In this document: positions 2,043-32,002 of the stretch, piece by piece
Layout: the number at the start of each line of letters is the position of its first letter
Position numbering within the stretch: the stretch's first letter is position 1
DNA from: a virus
Length of the DNA: 33,319 nucleotides
IMG/VR virus record: IMGVR_UViG_3300004280_000004
Location: 1-33,319 of that record
Reading direction: 5' to 3' (one strand)
The notes under the pieces: model-generated
Told to the model about the DNA's origin: nothing
Seen by the model: the letters and a program-made list of their open reading frames with translations, nothing else
Database searches by the model: none
Made by a program: the position numbers and the translations under genes

Positions 2043-3953
2043 TTAGATATCGACTTGCTCGCAATCCTCCCCCATACAAGCAAATGTTTGGCTACCTAGC
2101 GTACCGTCTTCTAGTTCATTAAATTCCTCCCACGGAACTTTACCATTCACTCGTAATATATTATCATACTCGTCCCCGTCTATTTTTTGATAAGGGGCCT
2201 GTTGATATATATGATCGTCTAAAGGTAAGAATGATATTCCACTGCATATCTCAAAGTTATTCCATACCCAACTACATATATCAAAAAACTCATCCGGAGT
2301 ATAGTATACAGTTTGTGAGGGTTTATGTTCGCACCAATTCTCAGAGTAAATTTTCCAAAGTTCTAATTGTTCCAAAGCACACATCTCTTCGTTCTTTATG
2401 GAGTTCATGGGCGCGGTCTTAGGGAAGCTAAAGACTACATTTGTAGGGTTCATTACGTCGACTTCATTTGGGACTCCGTTTTCAATCATAAACTGACTTA
2501 ATGGGTCTTTTATATCCCCTCTTACTGTTCTAATATAAAAATCACTAAATCTTGGGTGTATTCCACTAGAACTATCAACTAGTTGGCTAACCGTCCCTGA
2601 GGGTTTAACGCAAGTTATAGCAACAGAGGCAGAAATTCCTAGTCTAGCTGCCCATTCTGCATTAGTACTAATAGCCTCATCTCTTAGGTCATTTAGCCAA
2701 TCCTTAATCTCATCATTCTCATAATCTCTATAATTTAACCCACTAAGAACTGGGTGATCCATAATCCCTGTTAGAGATACCCCTAGCAGTCTTTCTTCTT
2801 CTGTATTCTTTTTCCATATATCCCTTAAATACCTAAAGTCTGTTAATGTACTCTGTATTGTTCCTAGGATAGTGGCGGCCCTCACTTTATATCTTAGTGT
2901 AGATAATGTGTCTCCTTCTCTAACTACTACTTCGGTAAGGTTGCAAAATTGATCTGGGCGAAGAATAATCTCGCTACATGGATTGGTACCGAAATCAATA
3001 TCCGGATTTCTGCGTCCACTTTTACCTGCTTGGGCTTGAGCTGCACCTCTATAAAATATCCCTCTCTCTCCGGACCTACTTTCAAAGAGATTTACCATTT
3101 CTTTCATAAAGGCTTCAAAATCAGGCTTTTCTGTATAACAGACAGAATTATTACTTAACGATCTTTGTGGCTCCGTTTGGTACCAAGAACCGTTTTTAGC
3201 TCTACGCATTCGATCATCAGTTAAATTAGAAAGAGATATCATAGCAGAGCGACGAACACCCCCAACTACTACTACTTGCCCAATCTTACATACTAGATCG
3301 TGACATTCTAGTGAATTTAATGGTCTACCTTTAGCTTTCTTAAATAATGTCGTAGTGAAATTAAATAGTTCCACCAAAGGCCCAGGTCCACTAGCTCTCC
3401 CCCCAAAAGTCCTAAGTCTAGCTCCTGCTGGTCTTACATCACTAATATCCCATTTAGGAATACGCCCATTATACAGCATGGATACCAGCTCTCTGAAGGC
3501 ATTTGCCCAGCCTAGCTTTGAATCATTAACTTTAATGGTCGTTTCTGTGGGATGAAATTTATCGGCTACAGAAGGCAGTTTTGATACATACTGTCTTTCA
3601 ACAGAAAAACCAACACCCGTACCGCACATTAATATATACATAATCTCGTCAAACGCACTAGGATGGTCTATTACACAGTATGCACAATTATATCCAGCTA
3701 CATTATCTCTATTCAGAGCAGGTCCAGCACTCATCATAGCTCTCATAGAAGGCATAACCTCCAGCCCTATAATCATAGAATGAATTTCAGACCATTCTTG
3801 GGGATCAATTTTATAATTACCTTTACTCTTTGCTTGTTTATACATATAATCGGTATAACGACTTACACTTTCATCCCATGTTTCTCTTCTATTTTCCCCA
3901 TCAATATGTCTAGCATACCTTGATAGAGCAATAAATTTTTGATAATTATCCAT
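2043..3953 (-). CDS. nrdJ: Adenosylcobalamin-dependent (class II) ribonucleoside-triphosphate reductase
   Basis: 636 residues from the ATG at 3953 (GAGG six bases upstream); a TTG 12 bases further up is less likely. It reduces ribonucleotides to deoxyribonucleotides using a B12-derived radical. Visible active-site parts match the monomeric Lactobacillus leichmannii type: a disulfide Cys in 'NCAYC' (about 90-93), thiyl-radical Cys326 in 'NPCSEI' with Asn324 and Glu328, second redox Cys337 at the same 11-residue spacing, and a C-terminal Cys626/Cys631 pair. It is about 100 residues shorter than the 739-residue enzyme. Its start overlaps the upstream gene by 8 bases. It supplies DNA precursors without oxygen or a diiron subunit but needs host cobalamin. 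Confidence 0.93.
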   Translation of the reverse strand: MDNYQKFIALSRYARHIDGENRRETWDESVSRYTDYMYKQAKSKGNYKIDPQEWSEIHSMIIGLEVMPSMRAMMSAGPALNRDNVAGYNCAYCVIDHPSAFDEIMYILMCGTGVGFSVERQYVSKLPSVADKFHPTETTIKVNDSKLGWANAFRELVSMLYNGRIPKWDISDVRPAGARLRTFGGRASGPGPLVELFNFTTTLFKKAKGRPLNSLECHDLVCKIGQVVVVGGVRRSAMISLSNLTDDRMRRAKNGSWYQTEPQRSLSNNSVCYTEKPDFEAFMKEMVNLFESRSGERGIFYRGAAQAQAGKSGRRNPDIDFGTNPCSEIILRPDQFCNLTEVVVREGDTLSTLRYKVRAATILGTIQSTLTDFRYLRDIWKKNTEEERLLGVSLTGIMDHPVLSGLNYRDYENDEIKDWLNDLRDEAISTNAEWAARLGISASVAITCVKPSGTVSQLVDSSSGIHPRFSDFYIRTVRGDIKDPLSQFMIENGVPNEVDVMNPTNVVFSFPKTAPMNSIKNEEMCALEQLELWKIYSENWCEHKPSQTVYYTPDEFFDICSWVWNNFEICSGISFLPLDDHIYQQAPYQKIDGDEYDNILRVNGKVPWEEFNELEDGTLGSQTFACMGEDCEQVDI

Positions 3954-4176
3954 TGTTTTCCTCAATTTCTGTTGGCCCCTTTTGGCAATCGGGACAAATG
4001 TCCCTATTCATTACATACATCCAATTTTCAGAGATATTAGCTGCAGCTCTAATATCTAATATTTTTCCAGTCCTTAAATCTTTGTATTGAATTAAAGGGG
4101 CTACTATATTCTCGCATGTGTCACATAAAATACAATTATGTCCAGTAGAGCCTTTTACCTCAAAATTTCCAATCAT
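3946..4176 (-). CDS. Small Cys-rich, probable zinc-binding protein
   Basis: 76 residues. It has 'CILCDTC' (about 16-22) and 'CPDC' (about 62-65), two CxxC pairs that could hold one Zn in a zinc-ribbon arrangement. The start ATG overlaps the stop of the upstream FEN nuclease (ATGA), and its end overlaps the start of the ribonucleotide reductase, so it is translationally coupled to both. No family was recognised. Binding of nucleic acid or a partner protein is inferred. Confidence 0.65.
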   Translation of the reverse strand: MIGNFEVKGSTGHNCILCDTCENIVAPLIQYKDLRTGKILDIRAAANISENWMYVMNRDICPDCQKGPTEIEENNG

Positions 4177-13773: not shown

Positions 13774-14602
13774 ATAAATGTTCTCTTAAGTTTTGTACTC
13801 TATTTTGATCCATTGACCCTGGATCTGTTCCTTCTTGTAGTTCTATTATATTAGTACTTATATCAAATTCTTTACAAGTATTTGCAAGAGTTTTAGCGCC
13901 TTCTCTACCTGCAACATCCCCATCAAACACTATATCTAATGAATAAATCCCCATTATTTTCAATAATTTTAGTTTATTGTCATTTAGAGCGTTTACACCA
14001 AAGGAAACTATCACGTTTTTTAACCCATTGTCATATAGGTTTAACATATCGGATATTCCTTCTACTACTATAACCCTACCTTTTATAGACTTTATTGGGT
14101 TAGGGTATAAAGGCAACTGTGCTCCTTTTGGCTCAATCATGTATTTAGCTTGATCTGGATTCATATTATCTATAGATCTTGCAATAAAAGCCGAAATTTT
14201 TCCTCTAATATCCCTTATTGGGAAGACTATCCTATCCTTATACTCTGATGATTTAAAAGCCTCAAATTCACTCATAGTTTTAGTACTAATATTTCTCCAA
14301 GGGGAAGCCACTGGAGTATAATCCTTGGGAAAGTTAAGTCCAATAGTATAATCTGATACTTTCCTAATTTTCCTTTTAATATTTTCTCTTTTTAAATCCA
14401 AAATATTCTGATCAATATTAAAATATTTGAAAATATTACCCTTAAATTTGCAACTAAAACAGTTAAAAATACCCGTAACTCTATCTATTCTCATGCTAGG
14501 GTTAGAATCCTCATGTTCTGGATTAATACATCTAATAAGACAATCTACTCCAGAAACTCTGAAGTATATTTTTTTATCGTTTAACAAATCTTCTACATTC
14601 AT
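13766..14602 (-). CDS. DNA primase, DnaG-type with zinc finger and TOPRIM
   Basis: 278 residues. Makes RNA primers for replication. The N-terminal CHC2 zinc finger uses Cys25 (or Cys21), His30, Cys48 and Cys51. The catalytic TOPRIM follows with 'VVEGISD' (about residues 175-181) and 'FDGDVAG' (about 225-231). A linker with 'RIVFPIRD' resembles the DnaG RNA polymerase domain. No helicase domain is fused; the DnaB-like protein is separate. The ATG overlaps the stop of the 31-residue membrane peptide as ATGA. Confidence 0.9.
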   Translation of the reverse strand: MNVEDLLNDKKIYFRVSGVDCLIRCINPEHEDSNPSMRIDRVTGIFNCFSCKFKGNIFKYFNIDQNILDLKRENIKRKIRKVSDYTIGLNFPKDYTPVASPWRNISTKTMSEFEAFKSSEYKDRIVFPIRDIRGKISAFIARSIDNMNPDQAKYMIEPKGAQLPLYPNPIKSIKGRVIVVEGISDMLNLYDNGLKNVIVSFGVNALNDNKLKLLKIMGIYSLDIVFDGDVAGREGAKTLANTCKEFDISTNIIELQEGTDPGSMDQNRVQNLREHLYG

Positions 14603-26375: not shown

Positions 26376-27215
26376 GTGGATCAAGAAAAAGCAGATACTT
26401 TCGGAAAATCTTTAGGATTTAGTCAGTATGCGGCAGTAGAACGAATACCTTTTAGTAGTGTAGATTTAGTTATGAGCTGTGATGGTGTAGGGACTAAATT
26501 ACTAATTGCGGAAGAATTAGGTATATATAATACAGTTGGCATAGACCTAGTAGCTATGAGCGCGAATGATATTTTAGCCCAGGGCGGAATACCTCACTGG
26601 TTTATGGACTATTATGCTACTGGCGAATTAGATTTAGATAAATCTAACCAAATTTTAGATGGCGTAAAAAAAGGGTGTGAATTAGCTAATTGTAAACTTG
26701 TAGGTGGGGAAACTGCCCAACTAAATCCTATGTTTCTTAGAAAAGAATGGTTCGATTTGGCAGGATTCGCTGCAGGTACTTTAAGGCGACGATTTGACGC
26801 GGAACGCGTCCGGATTGGAGATAGGCTAATAGGGATTCCTAGTTCTGGTTTGCATTCTAATGGTTTCACTACTATTAGGAATAGTTACAGTACTTGGGAA
26901 CCTTGGATGTTAGAACCCACTAGAATATATGTAGATGAAATGTTTAGGAATTTCAAATACATAAAAGCTGCCGCACATATCACAGGCGGAGGAATTCATG
27001 GTAATCTAAAAAGGATTACTCAAGGTAGGAAATATACCCTCCATTTTGACTTTAGCGACTTTTGGAACGGTATTCTTACCAATACAGGGCTTACCCCTAT
27101 AAAGATGCTTAATACGTTTAATTGCGGTTGGGGCATGATTCTAATAGTGGAAGGTCTGAATACACAACTATTAGATATTCCAGATGCCGTGGAGATAGGC
27201 AAAATAATTTTTTAG
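26376..27215 (+). CDS. purM: Phosphoribosylformylglycinamidine cyclo-ligase, shortened
   Basis: 279 residues from a GTG start with AGAGAG upstream. Closes the imidazole ring (FGAM to AIR) in purine synthesis. Conserved blocks: 'SCDGVGTKL' (about 34-42), 'GIDLVAMSANDI' (about 55-66), 'DYYATGELD', 'GGETAQ' (about 110-115), 'SSGLHSNG', 'PTRIYV', 'HITGGG', 'FNCGWGM'. It is about 65 residues shorter than E. coli PurM (345), mostly at the N-terminus where the substrate/ATP loop region lies. Viral purM occurs in cyanophages. Activity is uncertain because of the shortening. Confidence 0.9.
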   Translation: MDQEKADTFGKSLGFSQYAAVERIPFSSVDLVMSCDGVGTKLLIAEELGIYNTVGIDLVAMSANDILAQGGIPHWFMDYYATGELDLDKSNQILDGVKKGCELANCKLVGGETAQLNPMFLRKEWFDLAGFAAGTLRRRFDAERVRIGDRLIGIPSSGLHSNGFTTIRNSYSTWEPWMLEPTRIYVDEMFRNFKYIKAAAHITGGGIHGNLKRITQGRKYTLHFDFSDFWNGILTNTGLTPIKMLNTFNCGWGMILIVEGLNTQLLDIPDAVEIGKIIF

Positions 27216-27227
27216 GAGAAAAGTAAA

Positions 27228-27443
27228 ATGTTACCACCACACATTATCATTCCAGAAGATTGTGGGAGTTTTAATACAAAATTACATAAATATGTTCCAG
27301 AAGCTGAATTAATTAAACAGAGGTTCATTCATAGTAAAGAAATTAAAGAGTATAAAGCTCATAATCTTAGGTTAATAAGTGAACATTTAGTTGATACACA
27401 TGAATTAAGATCACAGCTGAAATTACTACTAGCTAGACTTTGA
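27228..27443 (+). CDS. Hypothetical 71-residue protein
   Basis: ATG with AGGAGAA upstream. Mostly helical and charged ('IKQRFIHSKEIKEYKAHNLRLIS'), with no motif recognised. It is the last gene of the operon, just before the promoter of the structured RNA. Confidence 0.6.
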   Translation: MLPPHIIIPEDCGSFNTKLHKYVPEAELIKQRFIHSKEIKEYKAHNLRLISEHLVDTHELRSQLKLLLARL

Positions 27444-27475
27444 AAAATATTTAAGTAATTTTGCAAAATATATCT

Positions 27476-27504
27476 TGACAAAGTTCCAAAATTATGGGAT
27501 AATA
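27476..27504 (+). promoter_or_regulatory. Promoter of the structured RNA, extended -10
   Basis: TTGACA (27476-27481), 17-nt spacer, GATAAT (27499-27504) preceded by TG at 27496-27497, an extended -10. The expected start is near 27511. No coding gene follows for more than 600 bases. Confidence 0.8.
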
Positions 27505-27510
27505 TGTTTT

Positions 27511-28034
27511 CAAAAGTTGAGAAATTCATTATTTTTCAACTTCTGAATCAAGACTTGGTACGCTGAGTCTTAGATGAGATCTAGCTCAATAAATTATTAA
27601 CTCCTGAATAGGTCGCTAATAATGAAAGGGATTATGAAAAAATGCTTCATATTCCTTCCTTATAGGAACCACTAGATAAACTGAGAACGAATACTTTTCT
27701 TTCAATCAAAGGGAAGTAGGCTATTTGAAAAACGACCTGATGAAAGTTAGTGAAATTACTCGCCACTTTCTACCTGACCATAGGGGGACTTAGGGCTAGG
27801 AAAAGGAATCCACCGTATTTGAATAAGTTAGTTCAAAGAGTTAGTTAATAGTTGAAGTATAGCAACGACTATTAGCAGTATTAAAGATATAATCTTGAAA
27901 TACACTTAGTAGGTGCAATCTTTGCTACTTACTAAGAAGTGTAGCTATACGCTACAAATGCAATAGCCCAAATGGCTCATATAGAGGCTCTAAACTATGA
28001 CCATTAAAGTACCTCTTTATTGAGGTATTTTTTT
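27511..28034 (+). ncRNA. Large structured non-coding RNA of about 520 nt, class unknown
   Basis: The stretch has no credible gene but has a promoter, a terminator and many stems. Seen stems: 27515-27521/27536-27542; 27550-27555/27566-27571; 27593-27599/27617-27623; 27634-27638/27646-27650; an 11-bp stem 27692-27702/27708-27718; 27742-27747/27765-27770; 27818-27823/27832-27837; 27846-27852/27868-27874; 27884-27888/27892-27896; 27902-27911/27930-27942 (GAA bulge); 27941-27945/27951-27955. Two possible pseudoknots: loop 27525-27529 with 27544-27548, and loop AGGTCG (27610-27615) with CGACCT (27733-27738). GGCTATT (27719-27725) pairs with AATAGCC (27962-27968), closing the 3' half. Size and phage setting recall ROOL and GOLLD RNAs, but identity to either cannot be shown here. 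Confidence 0.75.
28010..28034 (+). terminator. Rho-independent terminator of the structured RNA
   Basis: TACCTC (28010-28015), loop TTTATT, GAGGTA (28022-28027), then seven T (28028-28034). It fixes the RNA's 3' end. Confidence 0.88.
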
Positions 28035-28050
28035 GTGTAAAATTTACACA
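28034..28050. promoter_or_regulatory. Perfect 8+1+8 palindrome, possible operator
   Basis: TGTGTAAA (28034-28041), A, TTTACACA (28043-28050). It is symmetrical around one base, directly after the terminator T-run and 34 bases before the -35 of the next promoter. The form suits a dimeric repressor or activator site. An accessory hairpin of the terminator is the alternative. Confidence 0.45.
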
Positions 28051-28083
28051 CTCCTACATTTTAAGACCTATGAAAAATATTTC

Positions 28084-28112
28084 TTGACTTTTTACAGAAT
28101 TATCTCTATACT
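28084..28112 (+). promoter_or_regulatory. Late-type promoter 1 for the adhesin genes
   Basis: TTGACT (28084-28089), 17-nt spacer, TATACT (28107-28112), then ATATAAA. Bases around it (TTCTTGAC and TATACTATATAAA) are shared with the promoter at 32101-32129. Confidence 0.8.
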
Positions 28113-28168
28113 ATATAAATAATGATTATAATATCCATAGGGGAATAGGGTGGGAAGAGGGCCAAAAC

Positions 28169-29482
28169 GTGACTAGCCAAACAGATATAGCCGCTCTTGG
28201 AGCAGATCATTTATGGGATTTTGACGGGGATGCTGTTGACGGGTTAGGAGGTACATCAGGTACTAATAATGGTTGCATATTTACAGATGCAGCGATTGCC
28301 CTTGATGCGTCCAATTGTATGACAACTAACGGACTAACAGATAGAATAGAAATAGCCTCTACAACTAACATAAATAATAGTGCGCAAGCTAGAAAAGCTG
28401 TTTGCGGTTGGTTTTCTCCAACATCCTATGATCAACCGCCCTCTAGAATTTATGGGGAGGGTACTCAAGCAACGGTATATCAGTTTATTATGGGATATGG
28501 AAATCAATTAACTTTCGAATGTGTCGAACCTACAAATTTCGCTACAGGTCTGCAGGTATATGGGCCTTCCTTGACCCCTGGACGAGCATATCATATGTGC
28601 GGTATTTTTCTTGGAAGTTCTTGGGGTAATGAGGTTAAACTTTTTGTTGATGGAGTTGAGCAAACTTTAGCTAGCCCTGTGAATAGACAACCAGGAACGG
28701 CAAGCTTGGATGCAAGAACAGCTGCACAGTTTGGAGACCCTTCAGCGACTGTCGGAGTTGGGGGCAATATAGTGCTCCAACAAGCCTCAAGAAATGGTAA
28801 ATATCAACATTGGGCCACATGGGGTGACGAGGCTGATGCAGACTTAACGGATACTGAAATTAGAACTATTTTATTTGAAAAACAAGCCCTTTCAGATAAT
28901 ACGGTTGAAACGGCTACTATATCTACAATGCAAGCAGATCTTAATACAATAGGAACTTCTCAGTCTACTCCGGGACTTATGCCAAATGCAGCTCTTAATA
29001 TTGAAGTTCTACCTATTTCTGGAGGAGGTGATTTTACTTTAACTACCAGTCTGCTATTTGATCCTTTATCATCCTGTCACTTCAGATATAATGGGACATT
29101 AGATAACTTAACTTTAGTTAATATTGGATCCGGAAATGCATCAATAGTTTCAGCACCCTTTGGTGGCACTGTTATTATTGCTACTAGACAAACATTAACA
29201 ATTACTGTTTTAGATGCCACTACACTCGCCCCTGTTGTTGGGGCTAGAGTATTTATTATAGCAGATACTGGAGGGGATTTAGCTGTGGGAACAGTAATAG
29301 CTAATGCTATAACAAATTCTTCTGGGGTTGCTACAGCTACTCATGATTTTACCAATGATCAACCTATAATTGGAAAAGTTCGTAAAGGCTCATCTACCTT
29401 GTTCTATAGCCAAGGAGCTATTCCTGGGCCTCTAACCAGTACTGCCCTTGTTTCGACTATTCTATTGGTTCCAGATGAATAA
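28169..29482 (+). CDS. Adhesin/tail-fibre-like protein with LamG-like and Ig-like domains
   Basis: 437 residues, GTG start with AAGAGG upstream. Residues about 10-245 look like a concanavalin/LamG sandwich ('HLWDFDGDAVDG', 'VKLFVDGVEQT', 'HWATWGDEA', 'ILFEKQAL'). Residues about 270-345 form a beta section, and 345-437 an Ig-like domain ('TITVLDATTLAPVVGARVFI', 'GKVRKGSS'). The same layout ends the protein at 29690-32002, so the two are paralogues. Likely a virion surface or host-binding protein. No signal peptide. Confidence 0.7.
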   Translation: MTSQTDIAALGADHLWDFDGDAVDGLGGTSGTNNGCIFTDAAIALDASNCMTTNGLTDRIEIASTTNINNSAQARKAVCGWFSPTSYDQPPSRIYGEGTQATVYQFIMGYGNQLTFECVEPTNFATGLQVYGPSLTPGRAYHMCGIFLGSSWGNEVKLFVDGVEQTLASPVNRQPGTASLDARTAAQFGDPSATVGVGGNIVLQQASRNGKYQHWATWGDEADADLTDTEIRTILFEKQALSDNTVETATISTMQADLNTIGTSQSTPGLMPNAALNIEVLPISGGGDFTLTTSLLFDPLSSCHFRYNGTLDNLTLVNIGSGNASIVSAPFGGTVIIATRQTLTITVLDATTLAPVVGARVFIIADTGGDLAVGTVIANAITNSSGVATATHDFTNDQPIIGKVRKGSSTLFYSQGAIPGPLTSTALVSTILLVPDE

Positions 29483-29690
29483 ACATAATTTAATTACTTA
29501 CTATAAAGATGGTATATTATATGGCATATTCACTTTGCATGACATTATAGACACGGAACCACAAACACCTGTTTGGACAGCTAGTTTTCCTGCTACAAGT
29601 GATAGGGATAAAATACCTAGACAAATGTTAATAAATAATCTAGATGCACAATATGAGTACTGGTGTGATAATGGAAAAGGTGCTAACTAA
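29475..29690 (+). CDS. Hypothetical small protein between the two adhesins
   Basis: 71 residues from ATG 29475, which overlaps the previous stop by 8 bases; its own TAA overlaps the next ATG (TAATG). Tyr/Asp/Asn-rich, mixed alpha-beta, no motif recognised. Such small proteins beside fibre genes can be chaperones or attachment factors, but this is not shown. Confidence 0.6.
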   Translation: MNKHNLITYYKDGILYGIFTLHDIIDTEPQTPVWTASFPATSDRDKIPRQMLINNLDAQYEYWCDNGKGAN

Positions 29691-32002
29691 TGCCCGCCCC
29701 TTTATATAGGTCAGGCTACACTCAATCTTTCTCCGGCGCAGAGGATCTTACTTTTGATATAAGTGGCGCGCAGAGCGGAGATTTCATGATTGTTTTTCTT
29801 CATGAATCTCTAAATGCCAACACAGAACTGTGGGAAGATGATGGAGGGGATGGCAATGGCTGGACTCTTGAGGTTCAGAATGAAACCACTGCCGGACGTA
29901 ACATGGAGTGCGCCATATTCTGGAAGTTTCATACCGGCACAGAATCTAACCCTACTTTTGATTTTGATACCGGTGGTAATAATTTCCCCATGGCGGGAGT
30001 TATGCTCTTTTACTCTGGAGTTGCTACAGGGACTCCTTTTAACGGGCCAACATACTCGAACGGCACTAATGACGCAGCCCCACCTAACCCCTCAGTTTCG
30101 GTAACCTCCACACAAACTAGAGTAGTATGTTTTCATGCCGCTACTCATGATGATATTAGCTCAGTTGGAGCACCTACAGGGTTTACTATTCGTGATTATG
30201 TCTACGGAGGTTCCGCACAGCATAATCAAGACCATAGGGACACGTTTTCCGCTGATATACAGATAGACTCTATTGGCACGTACTCCCCCCCTGACTGGCA
30301 GCACGGATTTGCTAATACTACTCCGGAATACCAGACATATTCTATTGCCTTAATTCCTGCTGTCGTCGGAGGTGCTTCGGTAACTGGAGGAACATCTACA
30401 GCTAATTTTTATTGGGGAAATTCGGGCCTAACAGTAACAGGATCTGGTTTTGAGGCGACCCAAGGAACGGGAAAGGTAGAGTATTGGTCCGACATTTCAG
30501 GAACGGTCAAGACTGCCCAAACAGTCACAACATGGGGTGATACAGGTCTTGTTATTAACTCTGTTCAAGGGTCTTTAGGGAATGAAACTACGGTATATCT
30601 CGTTGTAACAAATGATACCGGACAGGTTAGTTCACCATTTGGTGTTTATGTAGGGTTACTAGGATACGAGTCTTTATTAATAAATGATTTGAAGTGTGAC
30701 CATCTATGGGCTTTTCAAAACAATTATACCGATACTGGATTCACAGGCCCTCAGAGAGATGCTAATGTTGCTGTTATTGGAACTTGGACGTTCAGTTCAG
30801 TTCCAATAAGAGACGGTGCAACTCACGCCGCAAATTTTAACAATGTTAGTAACGCAAGAGAAACAACTCAGTCTCCAAACATGAATATAACAATTAATTC
30901 TGTGGAAAGGACTTTGTCTTTTTGGTTGGTACTAAATGGGACACAGCCATCTTTGGGAGCTATATATAAGGAAGGTGGTGCGGTTCAAAACATAGCATTT
31001 CTCACTGGCTACGGAAATACGCTTTGTTTTCAGGTAGCAGATCAGCCAGGTAATGCAATTAACGCGCAAGCATGGTCTGATTTTAGGCTTGTTCCAGGAC
31101 GACCATATAATATAACAGGCAGGTATTCTCTCTCAGAAACGCCTAAAATAGTCGATCTGCACATTGATGGGGTTCTTCAATCAAACTCTTCTGGTAATCC
31201 ACCAGGAACTGGATCTTTTGACTCACACTCAGGTTCCGTATGTTTTAATAATCCAGATAACAGTCTGGAAACCGGTGGCACTGACATTGCTTATTCGGGT
31301 ATGGAAGACGCCAAGGTGTCTGATTTTGCATCTTGGGGAGATAACTCAACAGGAACTAATAAAGGTTTTATTGACTCAATAACAGGTATTAGAGACATTC
31401 TATTTCGTAGAGGGGCTTTGCCGGATGATACCATTGTTTCTGGGACTCAAGCATCTATGCAAACAGCCCTTGACTCTACCGCCAATTCTAGGCGTAATTG
31501 GCCTTTAAGCTATAGAATAGAGGAAGTTTCTGGGGGTGGTAATTTTGAGTTGACAATGAACAATAAGGTTTTTGACCCCCTAATAACTATGGATTTAGAA
31601 TATAGAGGAACAGATACTTTGACAATTGTTCGTCCAATAAATTCTAACTTTAACGAAGCTAAAAGCTTCTCTCCTTTAGCAGGTACCATCGAAATAATTG
31701 ATCTTGTGCCTATTACCGTCAAAATAAGAAATATAGAAGATAATTCTGCCATACCTGGAGCAAGGATTAGATTACTTACTGCTTCGGGTGGACCTGAAGC
31801 AGCGGGAGTTTCTGTTTTAGAAGGGGTCACTACTGGAAGTGGTGAGCTTATAGGAACATATAGATATAAAGGAGCTCCTCAACCCCTAACGGGCAAAGTA
31901 AGGCAAGGAACTCTAGCTCCCACCTATAGATCTTCGAGTATTTCAGATAGTATAACAATAGATGGTTTAAATTTAACTGTTTTTATGATTAAAGACAGTT
32001 AA
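29690..32002 (+). CDS. Large multi-domain adhesin/tail-fibre-like protein
   Basis: 770 residues. Domains in order: an N-terminal beta domain rich in Asp/Gly/Trp (about 1-225, 'GDFMIVFLHESLNANTELW'), an IPT/TIG-like domain (about 230-325), a LamG-like sandwich (about 330-590), a linking beta section and an Ig-like C-terminal domain (about 675-770, 'PITVKIRNIEDNSAIPGARIRLL', 'GKVRQGT'). The last part is paralogous to the protein at 28169-29482. The first 970 bases look richer in G and C than the rest, which suggests a domain swap. Host receptor binding is the likely role. Confidence 0.7.
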   Translation: MPAPLYRSGYTQSFSGAEDLTFDISGAQSGDFMIVFLHESLNANTELWEDDGGDGNGWTLEVQNETTAGRNMECAIFWKFHTGTESNPTFDFDTGGNNFPMAGVMLFYSGVATGTPFNGPTYSNGTNDAAPPNPSVSVTSTQTRVVCFHAATHDDISSVGAPTGFTIRDYVYGGSAQHNQDHRDTFSADIQIDSIGTYSPPDWQHGFANTTPEYQTYSIALIPAVVGGASVTGGTSTANFYWGNSGLTVTGSGFEATQGTGKVEYWSDISGTVKTAQTVTTWGDTGLVINSVQGSLGNETTVYLVVTNDTGQVSSPFGVYVGLLGYESLLINDLKCDHLWAFQNNYTDTGFTGPQRDANVAVIGTWTFSSVPIRDGATHAANFNNVSNARETTQSPNMNITINSVERTLSFWLVLNGTQPSLGAIYKEGGAVQNIAFLTGYGNTLCFQVADQPGNAINAQAWSDFRLVPGRPYNITGRYSLSETPKIVDLHIDGVLQSNSSGNPPGTGSFDSHSGSVCFNNPDNSLETGGTDIAYSGMEDAKVSDFASWGDNSTGTNKGFIDSITGIRDILFRRGALPDDTIVSGTQASMQTALDSTANSRRNWPLSYRIEEVSGGGNFELTMNNKVFDPLITMDLEYRGTDTLTIVRPINSNFNEAKSFSPLAGTIEIIDLVPITVKIRNIEDNSAIPGARIRLLTASGGPEAAGVSVLEGVTTGSGELIGTYRYKGAPQPLTGKVRQGTLAPTYRSSSISDSITIDGLNLTVFMIKDS

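What the first reader, a model, noticed from the sequence alone, without database searches (positions are those of the whole stretch)
27511..28034. Stand-alone, highly folded RNA of about 520 nt in a phage, class unknown
Seen: 600+ bases with no credible gene, an extended -10 promoter at 27476-27504, a rho-independent terminator at 28010-28034, and at least eleven local stems, two possible pseudoknots (27525-27529/27544-27548 and 27610-27615/27733-27738) and a long-range 7-bp pairing (27719-27725/27962-27968). Known: ROOL and GOLLD are large ornate phage RNAs that assemble into cages. Inferred: this may be a divergent member or a new class. Unlike many of those, no tRNA is visible nearby.
Basis: partly seen in the sequence, partly recalled or inferred. 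Interest (0 to 1): 0.88.

Follow-up and report, generated by a model that had tools for sequence, protein, structure and literature searches.

The report
Stand-alone cap half of GOLLD RNA
A phage carries a short, separately transcribed RNA that matches only the front half of GOLLD, a giant phage RNA that assembles into hollow cages, suggesting that the cage-forming RNA can be cut down to its cap domain.

Summary
In detail: 27511-28034 (+) is non-coding, unusually foldable (z -5.5), and lies between a strong promoter and an intrinsic terminator. It matches no Rfam family. Relatives give it an identity. The related phage contig G004 carries a GOLLD RNA (RF02032), and its 5' domain resembles the window RNA. 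I built two covariance models from GOLLD 5' domains, leaving the window out. The module that ends the 5' domain (R1) hits the window once, at 27831-27911 (40.7 bits, E 1.8e-8); all 19 base pairs the window retains are standard. The upstream four-way junction (R2) finds 27577-27685 only weakly (18.9 bits, E 3.5e-4 in a 681-base search without filters). Order and spacing match GOLLD. In 23 of 23 other loci with R1 at 40 bits or more, the GOLLD 3' domain follows. In the window 123 unrelated bases and a terminator follow instead. In cryo-EM the 5' domain is the cage's cap; the 3' domain forms the wall and the joint. This is a cap-only relative of GOLLD, invisible to the Rfam model, which covers only the 3' domain. 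It is a single example on a partial contig: a separately encoded 3' domain cannot be excluded, and ring assembly is an inference.

The parts
27475..27503 (+). sigma-70-type promoter, TTGACA-N17-GATAAT with extended TG
   Evidence: 11 of 12 consensus matches; the -10 and the next bases are shared with a promoter 5' of the GOLLD locus in G004 (28 of 28 bases). The same element also heads an mRNA in G002, so it is a house promoter of this phage group
27511..28034 (+). the non-coding RNA as a whole, about 524 nt
   Evidence: promoter and terminator, fold z -5.5, no ORF of 60 aa or more
27511..27575 (+). 5' leader of two long hairpins (27511-27545 and 27547-27575)
   Evidence: minimum-energy fold; no equivalent recognised in G004, status unknown
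27577..27685 (+). four-way junction of the GOLLD 5' domain: P1 AUCUAG/CUAGAU, AUAA, enlarged H1, GAAAG, H2, H3, then AAACUGAG
   Evidence: best hit of model R2 (built without the window) in a filter-free search of 27440-28120: 18.9 bits, E 3.5e-4; not found with default filters. Same folds in nine GOLLDs and the window
27692..27718 (+). hairpin that follows the junction; a hairpin lies at the same place in G004 and L040
   Evidence: fold and alignment
27771..27830 (+). segment with GGGGGAC...GGAATCCACC, shared with G004 (GGGGACAU...GGAAUCCACC) and partly with L040
   Evidence: alignments
27831..27911 (+). module that ends the GOLLD 5' domain: AAAG.GU, stem A, CA, stem B (GUAU/AUAC, AAAG/UCUUGAA), AGUA
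   Evidence: only hit in the window of model R1 (built from nine GOLLDs without the window): 40.7 bits, E 1.8e-8; all 19 retained pairs standard, 3 changed on both sides
27912..28005 (+). tail of the RNA, in place of the about 410-nt GOLLD 3' domain; unrelated to it by sequence
   Evidence: RF02032 gives no match in this record; tail against the G004 3' domain scores 21 with shuffled mean 21.4
28006..28034 (+). intrinsic terminator
   Evidence: 10-bp stem followed by a T run

Best explanation
The RNA is a stand-alone GOLLD 5' (cap) domain: an independently transcribed phage RNA of about 520 nt that has the GOLLD 5'-domain junction and end module but lacks the GOLLD 3' domain and the linker that sometimes holds a tRNA. 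Most likely mechanism (inferred): it is transcribed from its own promoter during infection and folds on its own, as the 5' region does as a separate domain in the GOLLD cryo-EM structure. Copies then join side by side through the cap contacts into an open ring or bowl. They do not form a closed cage, because the wall and the joint between half-shells are made by the 3' domain. Homology to the 5' domain and absence of the 3' domain from this transcript are shown by computation; transcription, assembly and use in infection are not shown.
For: Blind hit of R1 at 27831-27911, E 1.8e-8 in the window, the only hit there. Across about 964 kb of fetched loci every hit of 40 bits or more other than the window is a GOLLD locus. 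More than 100 loci chosen by a DNA pattern of the same motif gave one strong R1 score (L167, a GOLLD); the rest were 17.1 bits or less. R2 finds 27577-27685 as its best place. R2 and R1 lie 145 nt apart in the window, against 131 in G004, 155 in MAL1 and 162 in V10. Ruegeria phage V10, which was in neither model, shows R2, R1 and RF02032 in that order. Both modules covary strongly in GOLLDs. The 3' domain is absent: RF02032 finds nothing in the window, though it gives 115.8 bits in the relative G004. In 23 other loci with R1 at 40 bits or more the 3' domain follows the module. Separate 5' cap and 3' wall domains: PMC12286853.
Against: One example only; no second cap-only RNA was found in the viral-contig scans. 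R2 is weak in the window and needs filters off. Plain sequence alignment to G004 (score 58) is only slightly above the best unrelated control piece (55). The tail has no explanation. Nothing shows transcription. The contacts between copies could not be checked, because the sequence used for the structure was not at hand.
Confidence: 0.68

Rival explanations
1. Split GOLLD: the same phage encodes the 3' domain as a second RNA elsewhere in its genome, and the two halves assemble in trans into a cage.
For: The break lies at the junction of the 5' and 3' domains, which are separate domains in the structure. The contig is a 33-kb fragment; related T5-like phages are 110-128 kb.
Against: No RF02032 match in the 33 kb at hand. 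No split GOLLD was met among the loci studied; every strong R1 hit elsewhere had its 3' domain in cis.
Confidence: 0.13
2. Decaying GOLLD: a recent deletion removed the 3' domain and the remainder is a relic without function.
For: Single example; the relative G004 has a full GOLLD; R2 is weak, as decay would cause.
Against: All 19 pairs retained in R1 are standard, three of them changed on both sides relative to the common pair. Promoter and terminator are intact and the fold is far better than shuffles. The tail is not a remnant of the 3' domain.
Confidence: 0.1
3. Unrelated large structured RNA that shares a short motif with GOLLD by chance or convergence.
For: Only about 80 nt match strongly, and whole-length sequence similarity is low.
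Against: R1 E 1.8e-8 from a model that did not contain it, a second module at the right distance, and a related phage with a true GOLLD.
Confidence: 0.05
4. Assembly artefact: the contig joins a GOLLD 5' half to foreign sequence.
For: Metagenomic contig; no second contig covers the junction (the identical contig L005 covers only the polymerase region).
Against: The fused RNA ends in a good terminator with normal phage genes on both sides, and the module sits more than 5 kb from the contig end.
Confidence: 0.04

Closest known systems
GOLLD RNA (Rfam RF02032), 5' domain
   Same: Same end module and four-way junction in the same order and spacing; phage-encoded; strong local fold
   Different: About 520 nt instead of about 800 or more; no 3' domain, no linker tRNA, no tRNAs nearby; ends in a terminator 123 nt after the 5' domain
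GOLLD RNA of phage contig G004 (IMGVR_UViG_3300035698_001446, 13.97-13.1 kb, minus strand)
   Same: Related phage (DNA polymerase 63% identical); same promoter type; 5' domain aligns over about 240 nt
   Different: Complete GOLLD with 3' domain (115.8 bits) and an embedded tRNA-like element
ROOL RNA
   Same: Large ornate RNA of phages that forms cages (PMC12286853)
   Different: No ROOL match in Rfam, even at E 10; [quoted passage not shown]
Phage ICP1 abundant non-coding RNA of about 800 nt
   Same: Phage long non-coding RNA without nearby tRNAs (PMC7567579)
   Different: R1, R2 and RF02032 find nothing in ICP1

Membership tests
GOLLD (RF02032) | conserved 3' domain, matched by the Rfam model | tested here: not met
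   no match in the window at the gathering score, up to E 10 in the region, or in the whole record; G004 control 115.8 bits
GOLLD (RF02032) | module that ends the 5' domain (stem A - CA - stem B - AGUA) | tested here: met
   R1, blind: 40.7 bits, E 1.8e-8; 19 of 19 retained pairs standard
GOLLD (RF02032) | four-way junction of the 5' domain with GAAAG between H1 and H2 | tested here: met
   R2, blind, filters off, 681 bases: 18.9 bits, E 3.5e-4, best hit. Weak: no hit with default filters; H1 enlarged and its GNRA-type loop lost
GOLLD (RF02032) | length about 800 nt or more | tested here: not met
   about 524 nt from promoter to terminator
GOLLD (RF02032) | tRNA in the linker or tRNA genes nearby (frequent, not universal) | tested here: not met
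   no tRNA in 33 kb; contig incomplete
GOLLD (RF02032) | self-assembly into a 14-mer cage | not testable with these tools
   needs in-vitro transcription, mass photometry, cryo-EM
ROOL | match to the Rfam covariance model | tested here: not met
HEARO | match to the Rfam covariance model next to an IsrB-type protein gene | tested here: not met
   no Rfam match; neighbours are a PurM-like gene and genes without family matches

The most novel reading that the evidence does not exclude
There is a natural class of cap-only GOLLD RNAs (or split GOLLDs) that Rfam searches miss because RF02032 models only the 3' domain. These RNAs assemble into open rings rather than closed cages, so enclosing a cargo is not the only use of the GOLLD fold.
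Probability: 0.4. Interest if true: 0.85.

Novelty: new variant of a known kind. Interest (0 to 1): 0.7.

Why it matters
GOLLD cages have no known function; the leading ideas involve enclosing a linker tRNA or other cargo. An RNA that keeps the cap domain but has neither linker nor 3' domain would separate the roles of the two domains and suggest that the cap is under selection by itself. It also provides a short RNA on which to test ring assembly. And it shows that the present Rfam model, which begins after the 5' domain, would overlook such RNAs.

Tried and rejected
Direct BLAST of the RNA against phages and plasmids: only chance hits of 40-50 bases, including an intergenic stretch of Vibrio phage pVp-1 that is too short. 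Neighbour-gene searches for syntenic relatives: the 71-aa ORF has none and the PurM-like gene leads only to G004. The promoter plus 5' 28 bases shared with G004: a house promoter of the phage group, not RNA homology. Pairwise alignment with G004 as proof of homology: beats 2000 shuffles but hardly beats real control pieces (58 against 55), so it is not relied on. A closing helix between ACUGAG (27680-27685) and CUUAGU (27905-27910): no support in GOLLDs by permutation. Tail as a shrunken 3' domain: not supported. Pattern hits L020, L223 and L246 as further cap-only RNAs: all lie in protein genes or read as coding sequence; L246 reaches 25.1 bits with R1, which marks the level of chance for pattern-selected DNA. 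Cap-only RNAs in named T5-like phages and ICP1: none.

Full report
What was claimed.

The observation. It holds. No ORF of 60 aa or more lies between 27444 and 28168, and inside there are only ORFs of 20-39 aa. A promoter with 11 of 12 consensus positions and an extended TG lies at 27475-27503, and a terminator at 28006-28034. The strand folds to -144.8 kcal/mol, z -5.5, with no shuffle as good. The opposite strand also folds well, z -4.3, so strand rests on promoter, terminator and homology. Rfam has no match at its own thresholds and only chance matches up to E 10. There is no tRNA in the window.

Where it lies. The window is a 33-kb fragment in IMG/VR. Its genes (SbcCD, D5-like regulator, DnaB-like helicase, NAD ligase, DNA polymerase, class II ribonucleotide reductase) are those of T5-like phages; the polymerase is about 42% identical to that of Demerecviridae. 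Closer relatives are contigs G002 (71%), G003 (63%) and G004 (63%).

The lead. In G004, about 2 kb from its PurM-like gene (58% identical to the one next to the RNA in the window), there is a GOLLD RNA at 13564-13106 minus: RF02032 over its full length, 115.8 bits, E 1.3e-33, under the gathering score of 150, with a tRNA-like stretch inside. The part upstream of the model's first position resembles the window RNA over about 240 nt. By itself this is weak: the score of 58 beats 2000 shuffles, but the best of 88 real control pieces reached 55.

The blind tests. A pattern of the GOLLD 3' domain fetched 80 viral loci. Just before the 3' domain many of them carry the same two-stem module: AAAGGGUAG, stem A, CA, stem B with conserved xARAG/UCUUGAA, then AGUA. 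Nine copies without the window were aligned (A2). The structure covaries strongly: 88% of cells paired, 47 cells changed on both sides against 18 in shuffles, and slid controls far lower. The covariance model R1 from these nine finds exactly one place in the window, 27831-27911, 40.7 bits, E 1.8e-8. Blind means here that the window was not in the model; the motif itself was first noticed by comparing the window with G004. Over 964 kb of loci, every hit of 40 bits or more other than the window is a GOLLD locus. More than 100 loci chosen by a DNA pattern of the same motif gave one strong R1 score, L167, itself a GOLLD; all others stayed at or below 17.1 bits. A later pattern-chosen locus in a protein gene reached 25.1 bits, which marks chance for such selected DNA. 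The window keeps 19 of the 25 consensus pairs (stem B is shorter), all 19 standard, three with changes on both sides.

The second module. About 130-160 nt upstream, GOLLDs carry a four-way junction P1 - AUAA - H1 - GAAAG - H2 - H3 - P1' - AAGCCGAG. Nine copies without the window (A4) covary (93% paired, 37 cells changed on both sides against 11 in shuffles). Model R2 recognises most GOLLD loci in the set. In the window it gives no hit at this place with default filters; without filters on 27440-28120 its best hit is 27577-27685, 18.9 bits, E 3.5e-4, the place already pointed out by eye. The window's H1 is enlarged and has lost the GNRA-type loop. A hand-made descriptor of the junction matched only this place in the window and nowhere in 1.18 Mb of other phage DNA, but it was written with the window in view and counts for little. 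The distance between the two modules is 145 nt in the window, 131 in G004, 155 in phage MAL1 and 162 in phage V10. V10, which was in neither model, has R2, R1 and RF02032 in this order, a clean positive control.

What is missing. In 23 other loci with R1 at 40 bits or more (about 20 of them distinct) the 3' domain follows: it starts about 24-27 nt after the module in most, and RF02032 confirms it where searched; the remaining loci were fetched by the 3'-domain pattern itself. In the window RF02032 finds nothing. Only 123 nt remain after the module, they do not resemble the G004 3' domain (score 21 against a shuffled mean of 21.4), and they end in the terminator. The linker that in GOLLD may hold a tRNA is gone with the 3' domain.

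How it may work. [quoted passage not shown] The window RNA up to 27911 is 401 nt, the size of a cap domain. I infer that it folds and self-associates as a cap, giving an open ring or bowl. Shown: homology of two modules, their order and spacing, absence of the 3' domain, promoter and terminator. Inferred: transcription, ring formation, benefit to the phage.

Limits. There is one example. The contig is incomplete, so a 3' domain encoded elsewhere (split GOLLD) cannot be excluded. The literature at hand (21 papers with the word; the passages read are) describes no GOLLD without a 3' domain, but most subscription papers, including the original 2009 description, are not held.

Verdict. A stand-alone GOLLD 5'-domain RNA: a new variant of a known kind. 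It should not be filed as GOLLD proper, since the defining 3' domain was tested and not found.

Noticed in passing
L017 (G004) 3607-4137, minus strand: GOLLD RNA with an embedded tRNA-like element that scores 115.8 bits, under the Rfam gathering score of 150, so routine annotation misses it
   Followed up: yes
L022 (Roseobacter phage DSS3_MAL1) about 1800-2980 and L247 (Ruegeria phage V10) about 820-1640: Complete GOLLD RNAs, with 5' modules and 3' domain, not annotated in the GenBank records; the MAL1 tRNA-Arg lies inside the RNA
   Followed up: yes
GOLLD loci in general (L021-L102, L113, L167, L220-L237): RF02032 begins after the 5' domain; R1 and R2 show that the 5' domain has its own widely shared, covarying modules (R2 in most of 80 viral GOLLD loci) from which a 5'-domain family could be built
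   Followed up: partly
L018 (G002) 1382-1670: Permuted tmRNA gene together with several tRNAs in the phage contig most similar to the window by DNA polymerase
   Followed up: no
window 26376-27215 (+): PurM-like (AIR synthase) auxiliary metabolic gene upstream of the RNA; a relative in G004 lies near its GOLLD
   Followed up: partly
window 28169-29482 and 29690-32002 (+): Large proteins without Pfam or PHROGs match downstream of the RNA; the first resembles a protein of Maribacter phage Panino (34%)
   Followed up: no
window 27475-27523 and G004 14037-14064 (-): Identical 28-base promoter and leader stretch in two related phages, a group-specific house promoter also seen in G002 at 813-845
   Followed up: partly
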